Assembly: GCA_937922745.1 (NCBI GenBank)
Contig: CALAJO010000035.1
Coordinates: forward strand, 1 to 64,000
Reading direction: 5' to 3'
DNA from: an uncultured cyanobacterium
GTDB taxonomy: Bacteria > Cyanobacteriota > Vampirovibrionia > Vampirovibrionales > JAGQHJ01
DNA length: 64,000 nt
Made by a program: the position numbers and the translations under genes. Under the pieces are notes generated by a model. It worked only from the letters and a program-made list of their open reading frames with translations. It was not told where the DNA came from and searched no databases. Below, piece by piece: positions 931 to 62,517 of this stretch. Within the stretch, counting starts at the first letter, position 1; every line of letters begins with the position of its first letter.

Positions 931-1794
931 TTACTGGTTCTGCATCCGAACTATCGGGTTATAAGACGGACGGATGGCAATCTGGAGTTTGCCGGGTTGC
1001 TGCTGTACCTGGCGTACAGCCGGTTGGGCGCTCGCCACACGCGCCGGGGCGGCAGGCTTGCTAGCCACGGCACGGTACAGGTCTTCACCCTGTTTCCAGC
1101 CCACACTATAGAGATGGCGAATCGCCTGCTTGTCCCGCTCGGACAACTTGGGGACATAGTTTTTATATTCCGCAACGGACGCCCAGCCACGACCACTCTT
1201 CATAATATCGCTATCGTTGTGGCTGTGTTCGGAAATTCCCAGCGCGTGCCCGATTTCGTGCATAATATTGGCTTTGAGAAAACGATCTTCAATGCCGGGC
1301 GTCTTCATCTCAATATCGGCTTTCTCGATGGTGTAAACGGTTTCTCCCGCCATTTCCGGGTCGGCGAACCCGGCAACCCATCGAAAGCGAATATGCGCCT
1401 CACGGGGATCATCCACAACGGTGTATTTTAAACGACCCTCCAATGCATCGGCCCAGGCATCCATGCTCTCTTTGACGTAATTGACGTAGCGCCCCTTGTA
1501 AAGCTTCGTATCGGTGGCATGGGTTTCGATGTGGATGCGAATCGGTTCGTGCATTACCTGCATCAGCTGGTAAGTGCGCATAGAGCGCCAGGAATCATCA
1601 TAGTCCTGATTATAAATATCGCTGGCGGCCGAGTTGCCCGTATTATACCGGATCAGGCCATTACTCGGCTTAATTGGAGCGTTTGCCTCGATAAACTCAC
1701 GGGAGGACATCCCATTATTGATCTTCGCCGGGGTTTGAACCGGGAATAACAGCAGCCCAAATAACGCAAGCGCAATGTAACCCTTGTTTCTCAT
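931..1794 (-). CDS. Matrixin-type (M10-like) zinc metalloprotease, secreted
   Basis: Signal peptide; HEIGHALGISEHS matches HExxHxxGxxH. Confidence 0.85.
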   Translation of the reverse strand: MRNKGYIALALFGLLLFPVQTPAKINNGMSSREFIEANAPIKPSNGLIRYNTGNSAASDIYNQDYDDSWRSMRTYQLMQVMHEPIRIHIETHATDTKLYKGRYVNYVKESMDAWADALEGRLKYTVVDDPREAHIRFRWVAGFADPEMAGETVYTIEKADIEMKTPGIEDRFLKANIMHEIGHALGISEHSHNDSDIMKSGRGWASVAEYKNYVPKLSERDKQAIRHLYSVGWKQGEDLYRAVASKPAAPARVASAQPAVRQVQQQPGKLQIAIRPSYNPIVRMQNQ

Positions 1795-14884: not shown

Positions 14885-16588
14885 TTAGGACGGCTGCATT
14901 TTTGCAGCAAAAGCAGGCGGCATGGGATAGAACGCCCTGTTAACGGGAACCGCCGGATTAAGCCAGGGCTGGCTTAATGGTTGCATTGGAATACGAAACA
15001 CCGGCTGCGGAGTTGGCTTTGCCTCCGGTGGTGGTTGTTGGCGCTTTTTTCGTTTTACTTGCCACTCGGTCCACTTAATGGCCAGGTAGGGTTCGGCGAT
15101 GCCTGTGAGGAAGAGCGATAAGGCCAGGCTTCCCGCGCTGATGAGGATAAATTTGCCAAGGGTGCCCGCATAAGTGGAAAGCGGTTTGGGCAGCAGTTTC
15201 TCAATTTCAATACGGCGCTTCAGGATGCTGCCGCCATTGCCGCTGGGCTTCATCATATTTTTATCTACCAAGCCGGCAATAAAGCGTTTGGCCAACGGGG
15301 TCATCAGGATCCACAGGCCCCAGCCCAGGAAGGAGTCCACCATGCGCTCGCGATACTCAATCTCGCTGCGGGCCGCAGTAAGCCGGGAGAAGATGAGAAA
15401 CGCAAAACACGACGCCATCTGTTGCGGCGTCGTGAATGGTAGGCCTTTTCCAAACTGCATCATAGAGCCCAGGCGTTTGAGGAAGTTTTTGGAGAAAGGA
15501 TTGTTCAACGCGTTGCGCCAATCCCCAAGCGAGAGCTTCACCGCATCGAATATGCCGAATGCAAACGGCAAGGGAATCAGCGCGCCCAGCAGGGGGCCGA
15601 TCTTCCCTTCCTTCAACGATTGCGTGAGATAAGGGAAAAATTTCTCGGCGGCGTTTTTAGGCTTGGTTTCCGCTTCCTGCTTTTCCCTTAATCCCATTTC
15701 GCCGGGATACATGGTTGTCCCATCCAATTTTCGGGTAATAAAGGTGTTGATATAGGGGACGGCCAGTGTCGCCGCCATGGCAAACCCTAAGCCAATCGGC
15801 AGACGCCATTTGTTGACCTTCAAGGTTTCCGTAATGCTGTTGATGGCGCGTGTATTCCAGTTGCCGGCCTTGCCGGAACGCTTGCGCATAAACTGCACAA
15901 ACCTGGTGGTATCGTCCAGCAGGTCATCCAATTGCACCGTGTGTTTCAACTGCTTGAACGAAACCACTTTGTCCAGTGTTTGCCGGTTGGGATTCAATAG
16001 TTTGGCAATCTGTACGGCGGCATCCCCATTGCTCAGAGCGTTTTTGGCCTTCGGCGCCTGGTTCGCCAATCGGGTCATAATCTGGGCGATGGCCGGGCTG
16101 TGCTTCCTGGAAACGGTGTTGCTCAGGTTATTGATAAATGCGGCTTCATCCGGGCTTTGTTTCGCAACGGCCTTAAAAAATTCCATGGTTTCGTTACTGG
16201 TAAAGTGGTTGGCAAAGTTGGGCTTGCGGAACCGACTGAGTAGCGACGCCAGGCCGAAGGCCACTAATCCGCCGGACACATTATCCGTGAGGATCGACAT
16301 CACTTCCCGAAATAAGCGCTCGCGGGCGGCGGACCAGTTGAGTTGTTTCTCCTGCACGCGGTCTTCCGGCTTGATGAAATATTGCCGGAACAGATCCATG
16401 CCAGTTCGTAGCAGCCCAAAGCCGCCCAAGTCCTCCAGAAACATCTCGCGCACCCTGTCCGCCTGGATCCATGATAATTTGCTGTCGATAGCGCCAATAG
16501 CAGCGGGTGACATAAAGCCTTTGAACCGGGCAGCCTGCTGCACCGGCCTGTTGGGGATATTTTGTTGTACCGGGTTGAGGGTCGTCAT
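14885..16588 (-). CDS. Large multi-TM orphan protein with N-terminal RFKGF leader
   Basis: 567-aa ORF, several hydrophobic segments, starts MTTLNPVQQNIPNRPVQQAARFKGFMSP; no domain recognised. Confidence 0.85.
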   Translation of the reverse strand: MTTLNPVQQNIPNRPVQQAARFKGFMSPAAIGAIDSKLSWIQADRVREMFLEDLGGFGLLRTGMDLFRQYFIKPEDRVQEKQLNWSAARERLFREVMSILTDNVSGGLVAFGLASLLSRFRKPNFANHFTSNETMEFFKAVAKQSPDEAAFINNLSNTVSRKHSPAIAQIMTRLANQAPKAKNALSNGDAAVQIAKLLNPNRQTLDKVVSFKQLKHTVQLDDLLDDTTRFVQFMRKRSGKAGNWNTRAINSITETLKVNKWRLPIGLGFAMAATLAVPYINTFITRKLDGTTMYPGEMGLREKQEAETKPKNAAEKFFPYLTQSLKEGKIGPLLGALIPLPFAFGIFDAVKLSLGDWRNALNNPFSKNFLKRLGSMMQFGKGLPFTTPQQMASCFAFLIFSRLTAARSEIEYRERMVDSFLGWGLWILMTPLAKRFIAGLVDKNMMKPSGNGGSILKRRIEIEKLLPKPLSTYAGTLGKFILISAGSLALSLFLTGIAEPYLAIKWTEWQVKRKKRQQPPPEAKPTPQPVFRIPMQPLSQPWLNPAVPVNRAFYPMPPAFAAKMQPS

Positions 16589-16609
16589 TTTTCTCGCATC
16601 CTGTAAATT

Positions 16610-16666
16610 TACCCAATCAGAAAAGCCACCGTTTGATTCGGGAGAATGACGGTGGCTTCTGATTGG
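16610..16666 (-). promoter_or_regulatory. Long inverted repeat in the 5' region of the 567-aa gene
   Basis: ccaatcag-aa-aagccaccgt ... acggtggcttctgattgg, ~18-bp arms, about 20 nt upstream of the start codon. Confidence 0.6.
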
Positions 16667-17043
16667 TCTTTACAGATTTTTTTAAAAAAGCAGCAACGGG
16701 CCCGTCATCTCCAACAAATGGTTGTGGTGATGATGGTGCAGATGATTCAGGTTGTTGCGTCTGTTTTTCATACTGTTATTAAACCGGCTCAAACAAAAAG
16801 TTGCTACTTCAAGGCAACATTTCTTCATATATTAAAACCCAAACACCAGTACTTGAAGGACGGTCATTGCTTGAGGGCAACCCATTTCCTTCTGTGCATA
16901 TTGGAATACGAGCCATATATTTTCAATTACGAATACCGAATAGGTATATTATCCTTTTGAGCAATGATCTCTGCGGGGGCTCCAAGTAGAATGCTCTCAA
17001 ATTCTCGTTGTCGTGATTCTCTACAAATGGATAGGAGCAACCA

Positions 17044-37014: not shown

Positions 37015-37278
37015 ATGACACGCCAGAGCGTTACGCTTGCCACAACCATTGCCGCTGAGGATGGCCTGCTTGCAGACTTGTTTGCAGGCCTCCGCAGTTG
37101 TGCCGTAAACGTTCGCAAGCTTGCTTACATGGCGTGTTTTTCAGCCCAGCTTCAAGGGCACTGCTATATCCACTTAGAGTTGGAGTACGCCCAGGATAAC
37201 CCGGAGCAGGTCTCCCATATCGAACAGCTCCAACTCAGGTTCCATCGGCTGGCGAGCAGTTGCAATTGCCATCAATAA
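37015..37278 (+). CDS. Small hypothetical protein
   Basis: ORF between the TPR gene and a strong terminator. Confidence 0.45.
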   Translation: MTRQSVTLATTIAAEDGLLADLFAGLRSCAVNVRKLAYMACFSAQLQGHCYIHLELEYAQDNPEQVSHIEQLQLRFHRLASSCNCHQ

Positions 37279-37286
37279 AACAGAAC

Positions 37287-37325
37287 AAGAAAAGCCCCGG
37301 TTATATCAACAACCGGGGCTTTTTA
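37287..37325. terminator. Terminator
   Basis: aaaagccccggtt-atatcaac-aaccggggcttttta. Confidence 0.92.
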
Positions 37326-37448
37326 GTGTGTTGAGGAGAGAGCGTCAATGAACAAGAGGTTACTGTATCGTGTTATCAGGAGAAACTTCCTGTCGGTGAC
37401 GGAATCCCTGATTGGAAGCGGACTGTCCGCTTCCAAAAGTTAACTGGC

Positions 37449-38528
37449 TTATTGGGTTGCCAGGTATTCCCGCAGATGCTGGATGTCCTTGTTCATCCGA
37501 AGCTTTTTCAAGGAGCGTTCCTCAATCTGCCGGATTCTTTCCTTGGAGTAACCCATCGCCTTCCCGATTTCTTCCAGGGTTTTGCGACGACCGGAGAAAA
37601 TCCCGTAACGCTCGATCAGAATGTGCCGCTCTTTGGGAGAAAGCACTTCGATGGCCTGAATCAGATCCTCGGACAGGAATTTCTTGGAGATAACGGAGGT
37701 CGGCGAGACTTCCTCTCCCGTATCCTGTACGTAATCTTCCAGCGTCAGGTCTTCGCCAATCGGCGTATCCAAACTGCGAGACTCGGTGGCCATTGCGGTT
37801 AAAATCGCTCGTACTTTCTTCTCGGGCAATTTCAACTCCTTGGACAATTCCTTGATGTTGGGCTCGCGGCCCAGCTTTAAGGACATCTCGCGGCTGGTGG
37901 TCTTCAGCAGCCGAATTTTATCCGACATGTGAATCGGGATCCGAATGGTACGGGACGTATTGGCAATCGAGCGAATAATGGCCTGGCGGATCCACCAGGT
38001 TGCATACGTGGAAAACTTGAACCCTTTACGGTAATCGTACCGCTCAACCGCTTTAATCAAGCCCAGGCTCCCTTCCTGAACCAAGTCCATAAACAGGACG
38101 CCTTGACCGATGTATTTGCGGGCGATACTAATCACCAAACGAAGGTTGGCTTTCACCAGTTTTTCCTTGGCGCGTTTGCCTTCCTCGCCACCCTGGCGAA
38201 TCTTTTTGCCAAGTTCAATTTCTTCCTTATGTGTCAGGAGCGATGAACGGCCCACATCCTTCAGGAACATCTGGAGAATGTCATCCGCCTTGAAATTATA
38301 TTTCTCCTCGGTCGACAGACTCTCGGATGCCAGAATGAGCTGTTCTTCCTTTTCAAGGTTCTCGGCATCATCCAGATCGAGCTGGGCAGGTTCTGCAACG
38401 TCGGCGAATTCTTCATCTTCGTCCAGAAAAATCTGTTCCAGTACGCTGTTCTCATCCACTACAACGGCAGAATCATCCAATTCCAGTTCGTCTGCTTGAG
38501 CCACTGCTTTTGTCTTCTTTTTCCCCAT
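37449..38528 (-). CDS. rpoD: RNA polymerase primary sigma factor RpoD/SigA
   Basis: [53 protein letters not shown]; region 4 [16 protein letters not shown]. Confidence 0.95.
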
Positions 38529-57629: not shown

Positions 57630-59144
57630 TTACCCTTCAATTTTATCCAGGTTTTTAACAGGTGGGCCGTCAATCACATGCCCGGTGGCATCGTAGCGAC
57701 CGCCGTGGCAAGGGCAATCCCAGCTTTTTTCGGCATTGTTCCAGTTGACGTGGCAACCCATATGCGTGCAAACTGGCGACATCAGGTGGACTTTACCGGA
57801 CTCGTCCTTGTAGGCGGCCACCTTCTTGCCCTCTTTCATCAGGATGCAGCCTTTGCCTGCGGGAATCTCGGCCTCGGTTTGCGCCTCGGAGGGTTTGAGC
57901 CGGTCGCCGACAAAATGGGCAACCGTTCCCACGTTTTCCGAGATGAACCCGGCAGCCGACGCCAGCGGCTTGACGCGATCCGGCCGGTAAACAGCGGCCC
58001 AGGCATTATCCACACCCAAGATGGCGTCCGCAATAATCTTGCCTGCATAGGTGCCCCCTGTCAGGCCTTCGCCGGTAAAGCCCGTGGCGATATACACGTT
58101 GGGCGCGGCCTGGGTAGGCCCGATATAGGGCAACCCGTCCACGGGGTCGTAAAGCTGGGCTGACCAGTGATAGTCAATCGACCGGACATCGTAATGGCGA
58201 TGCGCATATTCTTCCAGCCCCTTAAAGCAGGTGGCCGTATCTTCCTTCTCGCCGGTCTTGTGGTCTTCCCCCCCAATAATTAGGAGCGGGCCGTTTTCAT
58301 CTTCTGTCAGGCGCATGTAGTGGTACGGTTCATCCATATCCCAGTACAAACCGTCCGCAATAATATCGTTCACCCGCACACCGATGATATAGGAGCGGAT
58401 GGGCTCCAGACGCGTCTGGATACTGGGCCATAACCCGATGGGCGTATGAGTCCCCAGCACCACCTTGTTTGCTGTAATGGTCCCGCTGCGTGTTTTAACC
58501 ACGCATTGCTCCCCCTGGTCAATGCCTACCACATGCGTATTTTCGAAGAGAAGCTCGTCTTGTGCCGCGACCGCTTGCGCCAACCCCTGCACGTATTTCA
58601 GCGGATGAAAACGCGCCTGTTCCGGCAGCAGAATGGCTTTATGGGTATTAAACGGCAGCGGCGCATGGTCAATCAATTCGCAGGGCACATTGGCTTGCTG
58701 GGTGGCATTAAACTCCTTTTCCAGCGCCTTGACCTGGTCGGGTTGCTCTGCATAAAGGAAGCCGGGGATGCGTTTGAACTCGCAATCCATGCCATATTGC
58801 CGGATGTTGGCCTCGATCATGTTGATTGCGTCCACCTGGCATTGCCCGACCAACTGCGTCTTTTCCGTCCCAAAATCGTGGTGGATGCTGGAGTATTTCA
58901 TATCCAGCAACATGGAGGTTAAGTGCCCGCTATTAAAACCGGAAACCCCGTAACCCACATGGTTTGCTTCAACAATGGCGACTTTCAGGCCCCTGTTCAT
59001 AAGATATGACGCTGTGCTTAAGCCGGTAATCCCCGCCCCAACAATGGCAACATCCACGGTGATGTTTTCCTTGAGCTGTGGAAACGTCGTCTCTTTGGCC
59101 TTGTGTGTCCAAATCGATTCCGAGCGGTGGGTGACGACCGACAT
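57630..59144 (-). CDS. FAD-dependent oxidoreductase (DAO family) with C-terminal Rieske [2Fe-2S] domain
   Basis: VDVAIVGAGITGLSTASYLMNRGLKVAIVEA; CTHMGCHVNWNNAEKSWDCPCHGGRYD. Confidence 0.95.
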   Translation of the reverse strand: MSVVTHRSESIWTHKAKETTFPQLKENITVDVAIVGAGITGLSTASYLMNRGLKVAIVEANHVGYGVSGFNSGHLTSMLLDMKYSSIHHDFGTEKTQLVGQCQVDAINMIEANIRQYGMDCEFKRIPGFLYAEQPDQVKALEKEFNATQQANVPCELIDHAPLPFNTHKAILLPEQARFHPLKYVQGLAQAVAAQDELLFENTHVVGIDQGEQCVVKTRSGTITANKVVLGTHTPIGLWPSIQTRLEPIRSYIIGVRVNDIIADGLYWDMDEPYHYMRLTEDENGPLLIIGGEDHKTGEKEDTATCFKGLEEYAHRHYDVRSIDYHWSAQLYDPVDGLPYIGPTQAAPNVYIATGFTGEGLTGGTYAGKIIADAILGVDNAWAAVYRPDRVKPLASAAGFISENVGTVAHFVGDRLKPSEAQTEAEIPAGKGCILMKEGKKVAAYKDESGKVHLMSPVCTHMGCHVNWNNAEKSWDCPCHGGRYDATGHVIDGPPVKNLDKIEG

Positions 59145-59423
59145 CTTGAAATCCTCCTGCGCATTGATACCGTGTATATGCCACAGTAGCGGATCTCATC
59201 CGTATCCGGTACGCCAAAATGAGCAATCTTTTTAAAAGCCCTTTCTCTTTTGAGCAGAAAGATTGCTTTTGGATGGACTAACTACCACATATGTAACATT
59301 TTGTTAAAACTTACGCACTGTCACGCATTTTTTACCCTTGAGGGTGCTTTATGTAGGAGCAAGGTGAAATACATAATGCATAAGACATTATAATCCTTGC
59401 ATACTGCCTCTCTCTATCCGTTA

Positions 59424-59462
59424 TCTCTTGCTACTTCCCCCCCTCAGCAAGAGATTTTTTTT
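59424..59462 (+). terminator. Orphan + strand intrinsic terminator
   Basis: tctcttgct-acttcccccccctc-agcaagaga followed by tttttttt; no + CDS upstream. Confidence 0.85.
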
Positions 59463-59569
59463 GCGTATTTTTAGGTCCACTTATTTCAATTAATAGTGCA
59501 ACTACAATTTGAGACAATTTTTATCTCTATCTTGTATAAGTTCTTGCGGCAATGCGCCTTAACAAAGGC

Positions 59570-59598
59570 TTGGTTTAAGGTGACTCAAGTATTATGAT
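59570..59598 (+). promoter_or_regulatory. Candidate sigma-70-type promoter of the micropeptide locus
   Basis: TTGGTT -17 bp- TATGAT. Confidence 0.4.
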
Positions 59599-59714
59599 CA
59601 CATTAGCCTGGCTGCAATACCTTCTTTCCCTTCTGATTGGCAGGCGGAAAGCGTTAGTTGGGGGGCGTACAAAAAAGTACCCCCTAACACTAACGGAAAG
59701 GAGGTACCTCATGA

Positions 59715-59777
59715 ATGGATGATAATACTTACCATTTACTGATGGTTGTGGTCATCATTCTAGCCCTACGTGGTTAA
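59715..59777 (+). CDS. 20-aa hydrophobic micropeptide MDDNTYHLLMVVVIILALRG
   Basis: Perfect SD aaaggaggt at 59697-59705; flanked by 5' hairpin and 3' terminator. Confidence 0.5.
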   Translation: MDDNTYHLLMVVVIILALRG

Positions 59778-59796
59778 CAGAGGCTAGGTGATCCGG

Positions 59797-59825
59797 AGAG
59801 GCGTCTGTTGCAGCAGGCGTCTTTC
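59797..59825 (+). terminator. Terminator-like hairpin downstream of the micropeptide
   Basis: gaggcgtctg-ttgcag-caggcgtctt stem (with wobbles), then tcc and a short T-run. Confidence 0.5.
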
Positions 59826-60050
59826 CACTTTCAGAATAGCGTATCGCTTGATAGTTATCAATACAAATACGGTGTATTTTTAACATTTGTTGTATTGTTC
59901 GGTTCGTCCATTCTAAAAGATACTTGAATCACCCATAAAAACCGTATTGATTGGATCTTCCACTTGGAATCCTTATGAAACTGCCAACCTGGATAAAACT
60001 AGGGCGTGCTGAAATACGGTTAAATAGGATCAACCCCAGGAGGCCATGCC

Positions 60051-60242
60051 ATGGAGAAAGACCAACAACCAAGAACGGAAACGATCTTTACGCAATCCCT
60101 GTCCCCCAGGATTGACCAGGACGCATTGACAGTGGATGGCGATAGCCCGCTTCCCCGGCCGATGACATCGGAGGAGTTGCATAACCCGAAAACGGCCAAG
60201 GAAATCCCCAAGCGGGATATGGATACCGATCTGGGCGCGTAA
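60051..60242 (+). CDS. Small acidic/disordered hypothetical protein (63 aa)
   Basis: SD aggagg upstream of ATG. Confidence 0.6.
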   Translation: MEKDQQPRTETIFTQSLSPRIDQDALTVDGDSPLPRPMTSEELHNPKTAKEIPKRDMDTDLGA

Positions 60243-60329: not shown

Positions 60330-61403
60330 ATGAACAAACCATGTGCCTTCAAACCTTATCTCACCATATTCCTTCTCTCACTATGGCTATGCATGCCTGT
60401 TACCGGCTTTACTGCTGTGGCGCCCAATGCGCCGCATTACCTGGGGGATGCGTTAATTAACGGCAAAACGGTGCAACGCTGGCACGACCAGACCCAGGTT
60501 ATCAATGTGAACATCCAGACAGGGCAATCCGTTGCCGGATGGAACCCGCAGATGATAACCCTGGTGAAGCAGGCCTTTACCGAGTGGCAAACGGCCCTGA
60601 ATGGCCGAATCCGGTTTAACTACACCAACGACCCCACGAAAACGGATGTGACGATTAAATGGCGCCGCAACCTGCCCGGCACGGAAGTGGGCGTCCAGAA
60701 AATCCGGTGGCACGATAACATCCTGACGGACGCGGACATTGAGATTGCCGTGCATAACCCGCAGGGTAAACCCCTTACCCAGCGGGAAATCCAGTATGTG
60801 GCCCTGCACGAAATCGGGCATATGCTGGGCATTAAAGGGCATAGCGCCAACCCCAACGATATTATGTACGCCAGCGTCCAGCCCCGTGTAACCCATTTAA
60901 CCGCGCGGGACAAGAATACGATTACGGCCTTGTACAAGCAAAAAGCACATATTACCAATCCACCCGGCGTTGCGTTGATGCAATACCGCCTGTACGAGTA
61001 TCACATTCGCCTGGGGTACGACGCCCACCAGCAAAACCGATTTGAAGCCGCCTATAACTATTTTGTGAAAGCCAAAGGCCATTACAAAAACGATCCGCAG
61101 ATCGATTATTTTATTGGCCTGAGCGCCTATAACAGCCGAAAATACCCGGCCGCCATAGAACACCTGACCAAGGCCAGCACCCGACCTGGGGAAAATCAGG
61201 GTAACGCCACGTACTTCCTGGCCAACTCCCTGATGGCGATGGGCTCCAACGAAATTGCCGGCGGGAAAAAAGCAAGCGGTATGCAGAAAATCCATCAGGC
61301 GCGTACCTATTACAGTTCCATCGTGAAAAACCCCAAAGCGCCATCCGACCTGAAGAAGATGGCCAACGCCAACCTGTCCAAACTCGCCACTGTTGCCCTG
61401 TAA
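60330..61403 (+). CDS. Matrixin-type metalloprotease with C-terminal TPR-like region
   Basis: Signal peptide; VALHEIGHMLGIKGHSANPNDIMY. Confidence 0.88.
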   Translation: MNKPCAFKPYLTIFLLSLWLCMPVTGFTAVAPNAPHYLGDALINGKTVQRWHDQTQVINVNIQTGQSVAGWNPQMITLVKQAFTEWQTALNGRIRFNYTNDPTKTDVTIKWRRNLPGTEVGVQKIRWHDNILTDADIEIAVHNPQGKPLTQREIQYVALHEIGHMLGIKGHSANPNDIMYASVQPRVTHLTARDKNTITALYKQKAHITNPPGVALMQYRLYEYHIRLGYDAHQQNRFEAAYNYFVKAKGHYKNDPQIDYFIGLSAYNSRKYPAAIEHLTKASTRPGENQGNATYFLANSLMAMGSNEIAGGKKASGMQKIHQARTYYSSIVKNPKAPSDLKKMANANLSKLATVAL

Positions 61404-61419
61404 CCGGGAGTAATTCTTA

Positions 61420-62517
61420 ATGTCCAGCATCAAGCGACTTATTTCCAGTCTGGTTCATGCCGTCGTCATCGTCTCCCTTATCGGCCTCAGCTTGCCGCAC
61501 GGCCTGTCCTGGGGAGAGGCGGGGCATTACTATAATCACATCCTGGTTAAAGGCAAGCTGCAACGATTTAACGACAACACGCGCGTGATCTATTACAGCC
61601 TGGATAGGCTGGATAACTTGCCCGGCTGGGATTATACGCAATGGAACTTCCTGAAGGACCAGGTCGTGGCCGATGCTTTCTCCGATTGGGAGCAGGCGCT
61701 GCATGGGCAGGTAAATTTCCGTTACACAACTGATCCGCGCCTGACGGATATTGCCGTCCACTGGCGAACCGGCTTTGACAATGAAGCCATCCTGGGGATG
61801 GAACGGCCCAACACCATTGCCGGAACCTACCTGGCGAACGCGGATATCGAGATCACCCTCTCCCGGCAGGGAAAACCCTTAAGCCGGGAGGAACTGAAAG
61901 CCGTGGCCCTGCACGAAATTGGCCATGCACTGGGAATGAACGGACACAGCCCCTATCCCGGTGACATTATGTATCCTTCCGTGCAGGCCAAGGTCAATCG
62001 CCTGTCTTCACGAGACGTCCAGACCATGCGGATGATTTACAATAATAAACCGCACATTACCAACCCGCCCGGCATCCACCTTGCGGCGTTCCGCGCGGCT
62101 TTGGATTCCTTTAGCAAGGGCTATGCCGCTTACCGGGCAAAACAGTACGACAAGGCCTACCAATTGCTATCCACCGCCAGCAAGCTGTACCCGCAGGAGA
62201 TGGGTTATCAGTATATGACGGGGCTTGCCGCCATGGCCGGAAAGCAATATCCACAGGCGCGGCCGTATTTTGAAAAAGTAGCGGCCACGCCCAACGATAA
62301 CCAGGCCAATGCCCAGTATTACCTGGCCGAGTTAATGATTCAGCAGGCGCAAGCGGCATTGCAAAAAGGTCAGAAAGCCCAGGCGTTGAAGTCCTACCAG
62401 CAGTGCGCCACCTTGCTGACCACCCTGATGAACAACCCCAAGGCGTCCAGCGAGGTCAAGAAATCCGCCAAGGCCCGCAAGGACGAAGTGGCCGCCAAAA
62501 TGGGCCAGATGGTTTAA
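61420..62517 (+). CDS. Matrixin-type metalloprotease with C-terminal TPR-like region, tandem paralogue
   Basis: Signal peptide; VALHEIGHALGMNGHSPYPGDIMYPS; co-linear with upstream gene. Confidence 0.88.
   Translation: MSSIKRLISSLVHAVVIVSLIGLSLPHGLSWGEAGHYYNHILVKGKLQRFNDNTRVIYYSLDRLDNLPGWDYTQWNFLKDQVVADAFSDWEQALHGQVNFRYTTDPRLTDIAVHWRTGFDNEAILGMERPNTIAGTYLANADIEITLSRQGKPLSREELKAVALHEIGHALGMNGHSPYPGDIMYPSVQAKVNRLSSRDVQTMRMIYNNKPHITNPPGIHLAAFRAALDSFSKGYAAYRAKQYDKAYQLLSTASKLYPQEMGYQYMTGLAAMAGKQYPQARPYFEKVAATPNDNQANAQYYLAELMIQQAQAALQKGQKAQALKSYQQCATLLTTLMNNPKASSEVKKSAKARKDEVAAKMGQMV

What the first reader, a model, noticed from the sequence alone, without database searches (positions are those of the whole stretch)
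59570..59825. Compact micropeptide locus resembling a type I toxin or small membrane protein gene
In order: TTGGTT-17-TATGAT; a strong 5' hairpin (gttagttggggggcgtac-aaaaaa-gtaccccctaacactaac, ~59653-59694); a perfect aaaggaggt SD; MDDNTYHLLMVVVIILALRG; a terminator-like hairpin. It sits in an otherwise CDS-free ~0.9-kb gap. A strong SD next to a sequestering hairpin with a 20-aa hydrophobic product is typical of type I toxins, though I recognise no named family. ATG 59711 (MNG*) is an alternative start that could couple translation.
Basis: partly seen in the sequence, partly recalled or inferred. Interest (0 to 1): 0.6.

Follow-up and report, generated by a model that had tools for sequence, protein, structure and literature searches.

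The report
Candidate RNA-locked toxin–antitoxin micro-locus
In a bacterium related to the algae-killing Vampirovibrio, a 250-base stretch appears to encode a 20-residue greasy peptide whose mRNA folds up to hide its own ribosome-binding site, with what looks like an antisense RNA on the opposite strand; this is the layout of a type I toxin–antitoxin pair, but it has no detectable relatives and nothing about it has been tested in cells.

Summary
Tools add three things it could not see. (1) The Shine-Dalgarno is sequestered not by the named hairpin but by a separate upstream arm (59618-59628 with 59696-59706). The predicted transcript 59604-59828 is the most strongly folded of 1,703 225-nt windows (z about -5.9; ends chosen by me). 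Predicted SD opening is 0.00, and about 0.5 if the 5' arm is removed. (2) The peptide's hydrophobic core was matched by none of 40,000 simulated post-SD ORFs. (3) On the minus strand a 10-12-bp hairpin plus T6 (one of two strong terminators on that strand in 64 kb) lies inside the locus; with a weak promoter at 59861-59833 it predicts a ~156-nt antisense RNA covering ORF and SD. This is type I toxin-antitoxin architecture, most like Ibs/Sib in size. Membership is unproven: no homologue in 289 class genomes, phages or plasmids; no match to any named toxin; transcription and toxicity untested. The organism is a Vampirovibrionales MAG. The only conserved part of the gap is something else: an upstream ~62-nt C/U-rich small RNA at 59399-59463, found in 12 of 18 genomes of the order and absent from Rfam.

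The parts
59570..59598 (+). putative promoter of the peptide mRNA, TTGGTT-17-TATGAT, TSS about 59605
   Evidence: 8/12 to consensus, below scan threshold; predicted TSS coincides with the 5' end of the outer helix
59605..59828 (+). predicted peptide mRNA (structured transcript)
   Evidence: -93.5 kcal/mol against shuffle mean -66.2, z -5.8, 0/200; reverse strand only z -3.2; rank 1 of 1703 windows
59606..59613 (+). 5' arm of outer helix, pairs with 59782-59789 (5'-3' long-distance interaction)
   Evidence: 5 Watson-Crick + 3 G-U
59618..59628 (+). anti-SD arm UACCUUCUUUC, pairs with 59696-59706
   Evidence: SD unpaired probability 0.00 with it, about 0.5 without
59646..59651 (+). GGAAAG, copy of the start of the SD arm; predicted to pair with the anti-SD arm before the SD is transcribed (possible switch)
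   Evidence: fold of 59604-59694; inference
   Evidence: z -4.0
59697..59705 (+). Shine-Dalgarno aaaggaggt
   Evidence: AAAGGAGGT once in 64 kb
59711..59722 (+). three-codon ORF MNG* at 6-nt SD spacing, overlapping the start of the 20-aa ORF
59715..59777 (+). 20-aa hydrophobic ORF MDDNTYHLLMVVVIILALRG
   Evidence: best 11-residue KD mean 3.68, 0/40000 simulations; no Pfam/NCBIfam match
59782..59789 (+). 3' arm of outer helix
59795..59826 (+). 14-bp 3' hairpin (mRNA 3' end or stabiliser), no U-tract
   Evidence: 4 G-U pairs make it specific to the + strand
59671..59709 (-). intrinsic terminator of candidate antisense RNA: GGTACCTCCT...AGGGGGTACT + T6
   Evidence: one of two >=9-bp/T6 terminators on the minus strand of 64 kb; 0.13% of locus shuffles give one >=7 bp, 0.03% >=10 bp
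59671..59826 (-). candidate antisense RNA (~156 nt), covers ORF, SD and half of the central hairpin
   Evidence: inferred from promoter-like 59861-59833 and terminator 59676
59833..59861 (-). putative antisense promoter TTGATA-17-TATTCT, TSS about 59826
   Evidence: 9/12, chance-level as a class; second candidate TTTATG-18-TAGAAT at 59939-59910
59579..59592 (+). left arm of 14-nt inverted repeat GGTGACTCAAGTAT
   Evidence: with 59920-59933 the only copies within 1 mismatch in the 3.16-Mb genome
59920..59933 (-). right arm of inverted repeat GGTGATTCAAGTAT
59399..59463 (+). separate conserved C/U-rich small RNA with terminator (not part of the peptide locus)

Best explanation
A chromosomal, type I toxin-antitoxin-like module. 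The + strand RNA (about 59605-59828) encodes a 20-residue membrane-active hydrophobic peptide. As made, it cannot be translated, because an upstream anti-SD arm pairs with the SD and a 5'-3' helix closes the molecule. Loss or refolding of the 5' arm (cleavage, or a switch to the earlier GGAAAG copy) exposes the SD. An antisense RNA from the minus strand (about 59826-59671), terminated opposite the SD, pairs with the opened mRNA and silences it. Shown by computation: the ORF, the SD, the folds on each strand, the terminator. Inferred: both transcripts, processing, antisense pairing, membrane toxicity.
For: Fold z -5.8 on the + strand against -3.2 on the reverse. SD unpaired probability 0.00 against 0.14-0.73 for 13 other genes in the window, rising to about 0.5 when the anti-SD arm is removed. 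Core hydrophobicity 0/40000 simulations; the only such ORF with locked SD and antisense terminator in 278 kb scanned. Antisense terminator at 59676: 0.03-0.13% of locus shuffles. Its 2 G-U pairs become A.C mismatches on the + strand, while the + strand helices carry 9 G-U pairs in all, so each strand has its own structure. 12 of 20 residues are hydrophobic; IbsC (19 aa) keeps toxicity at 15 aa with 10 hydrophobic residues (PMC8309996). A non-translatable, aSD-locked primary transcript is called a hallmark of type I loci (PMC6733600).
Against: No homologue in 289 genomes of the class, the order by structure model, phages or plasmids, so no codon-level or covariation test. Both promoters are weak matches. 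The 3' hairpin lacks a U-tract. The hydrophobic core (11-14 residues) is short for a membrane span. The statistics were set after seeing the locus. One MAG only.
Confidence: 0.5

Rival explanations
1. A real, translationally locked small membrane protein with antisense or structural control, but not a toxin: a regulatory micropeptide expressed only when the lock opens.
For: Same anatomy. In Microcystis, four of six tested predicted type I loci had no effect in E. coli (PMC12390103).
Against: The antisense terminator opposite the SD and the Ibs-like size are what toxin loci show; no partner gene is nearby.
Confidence: 0.2
2. A structured 5' leader with leader peptide (attenuator or riboswitch-like) of the downstream 63-aa/matrixin genes (60051 onward).
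For: The run of Val/Ile/Leu codons and the following hairpin resemble ilv/leu leader peptides (own knowledge); no U-tract at 59826, so read-through is possible.
Against: Downstream genes are a small protein and matrixins, not branched-chain amino-acid genes. In G002 the 63-aa homologue follows a glucosidase after about 100 bp without this leader. No Rfam match.
Confidence: 0.1
3. A structured non-coding RNA (or a small inserted element between the inverted repeats 59579-59592/59920-59933) in which the peptide is incidental.
For: Most strongly folded stretch of the window; single copy; 14-nt inverted repeats about 330 bp apart (about 0.06 expected by chance in the gap, own estimate).
Against: A perfect SD, sequestered, in front of an extreme hydrophobic ORF is not expected of a non-coding RNA. 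No other copies; no target-site duplication or transposase seen.
Confidence: 0.12
4. Chance assembly of intergenic sequence without function.
For: No conservation anywhere; weak promoters; post hoc tests.
Against: Several features (fold, SD, hydrophobicity, antisense terminator) coincide in 250 bp; fold, hydrophobicity and terminator are each rare under shuffling or simulation (0/200, 0/40000, 0.03-0.13%).
Confidence: 0.08

Closest known systems
Ibs/Sib (E. coli type I TA)
   Same: Peptide size (19 against 20 aa), hydrophobic core, antisense RNA predicted to cover the whole ORF and its SD
   Different: No sequence match; here the SD is locked by a long upstream anti-SD arm and a 5'-3' helix; single copy; not in Proteobacteria
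AapA/IsoA (Helicobacter type I TA)
   Same: Anti-SD pairing and a 5'-3' long-distance helix give an inert primary mRNA (PMC6733600); possible metastable alternative pairing
   Different: Peptide not matched to it by any family search; here the anti-SD arm lies 5' and the opening step would be 5' loss, whereas AapA3 is activated by 3' truncation
MsoT1/MsoA1 (Microcystis aeruginosa)
   Same: Candidate type I pair with opposite-strand RNA in the same wider phylum (PMC12390103)
   Different: 63-aa, two-helix toxin with many homologues; antisense covers only the 3' part of the CDS and 3' UTR
ilv/leu leader-peptide attenuators
   Same: Short ORF rich in Val/Ile/Leu codons followed by a hairpin
   Different: No amino-acid biosynthesis operon downstream, no U-tract, SD sequestered
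Yfr1 (RF01116), for the neighbouring sRNA only
   Same: About 60 nt, single copy, unpaired ACU(G)CCUC-like pyrimidine stretch before a terminator
   Different: No ACUCCUCACAC, no 5' stem-loop, Rfam model does not match

Membership tests
type I toxin-antitoxin system | small (<60 aa) hydrophobic peptide | tested here: met
   20 aa, 12 hydrophobic; KD-11 3.68, 0/40000 simulations
type I toxin-antitoxin system | predicted alpha-helical transmembrane segment | tested here: inconclusive
   hydrophobic core only 11-14 residues; too short for the structure predictor
type I toxin-antitoxin system | primary transcript with SD sequestered by an anti-SD | tested here: met
   in-silico only:
type I toxin-antitoxin system | antisense RNA antitoxin | tested here: inconclusive
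   strong minus-strand terminator at 59676, weak promoter; no trans-encoded complement found in own genome
type I toxin-antitoxin system | toxicity of the peptide and neutralisation by the RNA | not testable with these tools
   needs expression experiments
named type I toxin families (Ibs, Ldr, Hok, Fst, TisB, AapA and others) | sequence homology to the family | tested here: not met
   no Pfam or NCBIfam match at E<=1; no tblastn hit in phages or plasmids; families too short to be modelled there were not compared one by one
amino-acid leader-peptide attenuator | cognate biosynthetic operon downstream | tested here: not met
   63-aa unknown protein and matrixins downstream
amino-acid leader-peptide attenuator | terminator with U-tract after the leader ORF | tested here: not met
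   hairpin 59795-59826 followed by ACUUUCAG; not among + strand terminators
Yfr1 (neighbouring sRNA) | match to RF01116 / ACUCCUCACAC motif | tested here: not met
   no Rfam match in the gap; own genome negative while cyanobacteria score

The most novel reading that the evidence does not exclude
The first type I toxin-antitoxin module in the non-photosynthetic sister lineage of Cyanobacteria (Vampirovibrionia): an orphan, among the smallest known, in which the mRNA is locked by a 5' anti-SD arm plus 5'-3' helix and the antisense terminator is built from the complement of the SD itself, so that one sequence serves translation on one strand and termination on the other.
Probability: 0.35. Interest if true: 0.65.

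Novelty: new member of a known kind. Interest (0 to 1): 0.5.

Why it matters
Type I systems were known only from Proteobacteria, Firmicutes and Tenericutes until one Microcystis candidate in 2025 (PMC12390103). A compact candidate in a non-photosynthetic relative of Cyanobacteria would widen their range, and suggests that such loci may be missed because the peptides are too short and too variable to find by homology. The overlap of SD, anti-SD and antisense terminator in 90 bases gives a precise, easily tested design.

Tried and rejected
Pairing between the conserved upstream sRNA and the peptide mRNA: duplex energies rank only 88th or lower of 4,264 segments, and the sRNA exists in genomes without the peptide locus: rejected. 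Known RNA families: none at gathering score, only chance hits at high E. Repetitive element: one copy in the genome. Orthologous locus in G002 (63-aa gene): peptide locus absent. FAD-Rieske orthologue in G015: contig ends before the upstream gap. Single-sequence structure model: no hit in the order beyond E about 0.8. Short BLAST hits in family f6 genomes (26-29 nt, E 5e-4 to 5e-3 per genome over 289 genomes): taken as chance. Gapped extension of the 14-nt inverted repeat: not beyond shuffles. attC-type site: arm order wrong (GTTAG...CTAAC), by inspection.

Full report
Setting. The window lies in a 3.16-Mb, 167-contig assembly. Named relatives that share the neighbouring sRNA are Vampirovibrio and other Vampirovibrionales, so the host is a member of that order, a non-photosynthetic relative of Cyanobacteria. 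The finding lies in the 906-nt gap between a FAD/Rieske oxidoreductase gene (57630-59144, minus) and a small gene of 63 aa (60051-60242), which is real because genome G002 carries a 53% identical homologue. Matrixin genes follow.

Check of the observation. All listed elements are at the stated coordinates. The promoter is only 8/12 and fails the scan. The hairpin 59653-59694 is real (z -4.0) and the 3' hairpin is a strong 14-bp stem without a U-tract. ATG 59711 has the better SD spacing (6 nt) but gives only MNG*; ATG 59715 (10 nt) gives the 20-aa peptide.

What the fold adds. Folding the transcript from the predicted start (59604-59828) gives -93.5 kcal/mol against a shuffle mean of -66.2 (z -5.8, 0/200); the reverse strand gives z -3.2. 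Against 1,702 other 225-nt windows of both strands it ranks first; since I chose its ends, the fair comparison is the on-grid windows covering it, with z -3.7 to -4.4. SD unpaired probability is 0.00, against 0.14-0.73 for the SD regions of 13 other genes in the window. It rises to about 0.5 when the transcript starts after the anti-SD arm. Before the SD is made, the anti-SD arm is predicted to pair with an earlier GGAAAG copy (59646-59651), a possible metastable alternative (inference).

What the ORF adds. The best 11-residue hydropathy is 3.68. Of 40,000 simulated sequences with the gap's dinucleotide composition, 15% held a 15-40 aa ORF in SD range and none was as hydrophobic. In 278 kb of window and related loci, only one other weaker candidate (L034, SD AAGGA, TTG start, SD not locked, no antisense terminator) turned up.

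What the other strand adds. A search for perfect stems of at least 7 bp followed by at least six T found two terminators on the minus strand of the 64 kb; one is inside this locus, ending at the T6 opposite 59671-59676. Shuffling the locus gives such a site in 0.13% of cases (0.03% for at least 10 bp). Its arms are the complement of the SD region and of the 3' arm of the central hairpin. Two of its G-U pairs become A.C mismatches on the + strand, whereas the + strand helices carry nine G-U pairs in all that fail on the minus strand: each strand has its own structure. A promoter-like site at 59861-59833 would start the antisense RNA at about 59826, but sites of this quality are at chance level.

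Relatives. No match to the locus in the class (289 genomes), by single-sequence structure model in the order, by peptide in the order, or in phages and plasmids. G002, which has the downstream 63-aa gene, lacks it: there a glucosidase gene ends about 100 bp upstream. Coding constraint and covariation therefore cannot be tested. This is the main weakness.

Mechanism. The most likely reading is a type I toxin-antitoxin-like module: locked mRNA, opening by loss or refolding of the 5' arm, antisense RNA as silencer, membrane-active peptide. The lock, the ORF and the terminator are shown as sequence and prediction; transcription, processing, pairing and toxicity are inferred. Literature support: aSD locking and 5'-3' interactions are a hallmark of type I mRNAs (PMC6733600); IbsC, 19 aa, stays toxic at 15 aa with 10 hydrophobic residues (PMC8309996); the first cyanobacterial type I candidate was reported in 2025 (PMC12390103). 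Filing it as a member of a named family is not justified.

The conserved neighbour. The part of the gap that relatives do share is upstream: 59399-59463, a ~62-nt RNA gene, CAUACUGCCUCUCUCUAUCCGUUAUCUCUUGCUACUUCCCCCCCUCAGCAAGAGA followed by U(9), ending in a terminator with a C-rich loop. It is found once per genome in 12 of 18 genomes of the order (one weakly), in differing gene contexts where examined, in no other sampled genome of class or phylum, and not in Rfam. The CU repeat varies in length and one stem pair shows a compensatory change. It recalls Yfr1 in size and pyrimidine motif (PMC2190773) but fails the Yfr1 model. It does not preferentially pair with the peptide mRNA, so I treat it as independent.

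Noticed in passing
window 59399-59463 (+); L003-L012, L013-L020, L032: Apparently undescribed, highly conserved ~62-nt C/U-rich small RNA gene of Vampirovibrionales (12 of 18 genomes, single copy), invariant CUCUCUCUAUCC stretch and terminator stem, variable CU-repeat length, C-rich loop suited to pair with Shine-Dalgarno sequences. Yfr1-like in size but not matched by RF01116. Probably of more general interest than the finding.
   Followed up: partly
window 59289-59360 and L003, L005-L007, L010, L011 upstream of the sRNA: Conserved upstream block (TTGTaAAA...CAATT...GG.GNTTTATG) before the sRNA, perhaps its promoter or a longer 5' part of the RNA.
   Followed up: partly
window 59579-59592 and 59920-59933: 14-nt inverted repeats GGTGAYTCAAGTAT flank the peptide locus; the only two copies within one mismatch in the genome; the left one lies in the spacer of the sense promoter, the right one between the hexamers of a second candidate antisense promoter (TTTATG-18-TAGAAT). 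Shared operator or ends of a small inserted element.
   Followed up: partly
window 60051-60242 (+); L046 1459-1674: 63-aa protein family with conserved C-terminus (PRPMT.EE...DMDTDLGA), no Pfam or NCBIfam match, shared only by two genomes of the family in the set.
   Followed up: no
window 16500-16825 and 37126-37525: Other strongly folded stretches (z -4.2 to -5.7 on both strands), likely intergenic terminator hairpins.
   Followed up: no
window 60330-62517 (+) and 931-1794 (-): Three matrixin-like (M10) metallopeptidase ORFs, two of them in tandem; the first (60330-61403) matches PF00413, the others were judged only by resemblance of the HE.GH zinc motif.
   Followed up: no
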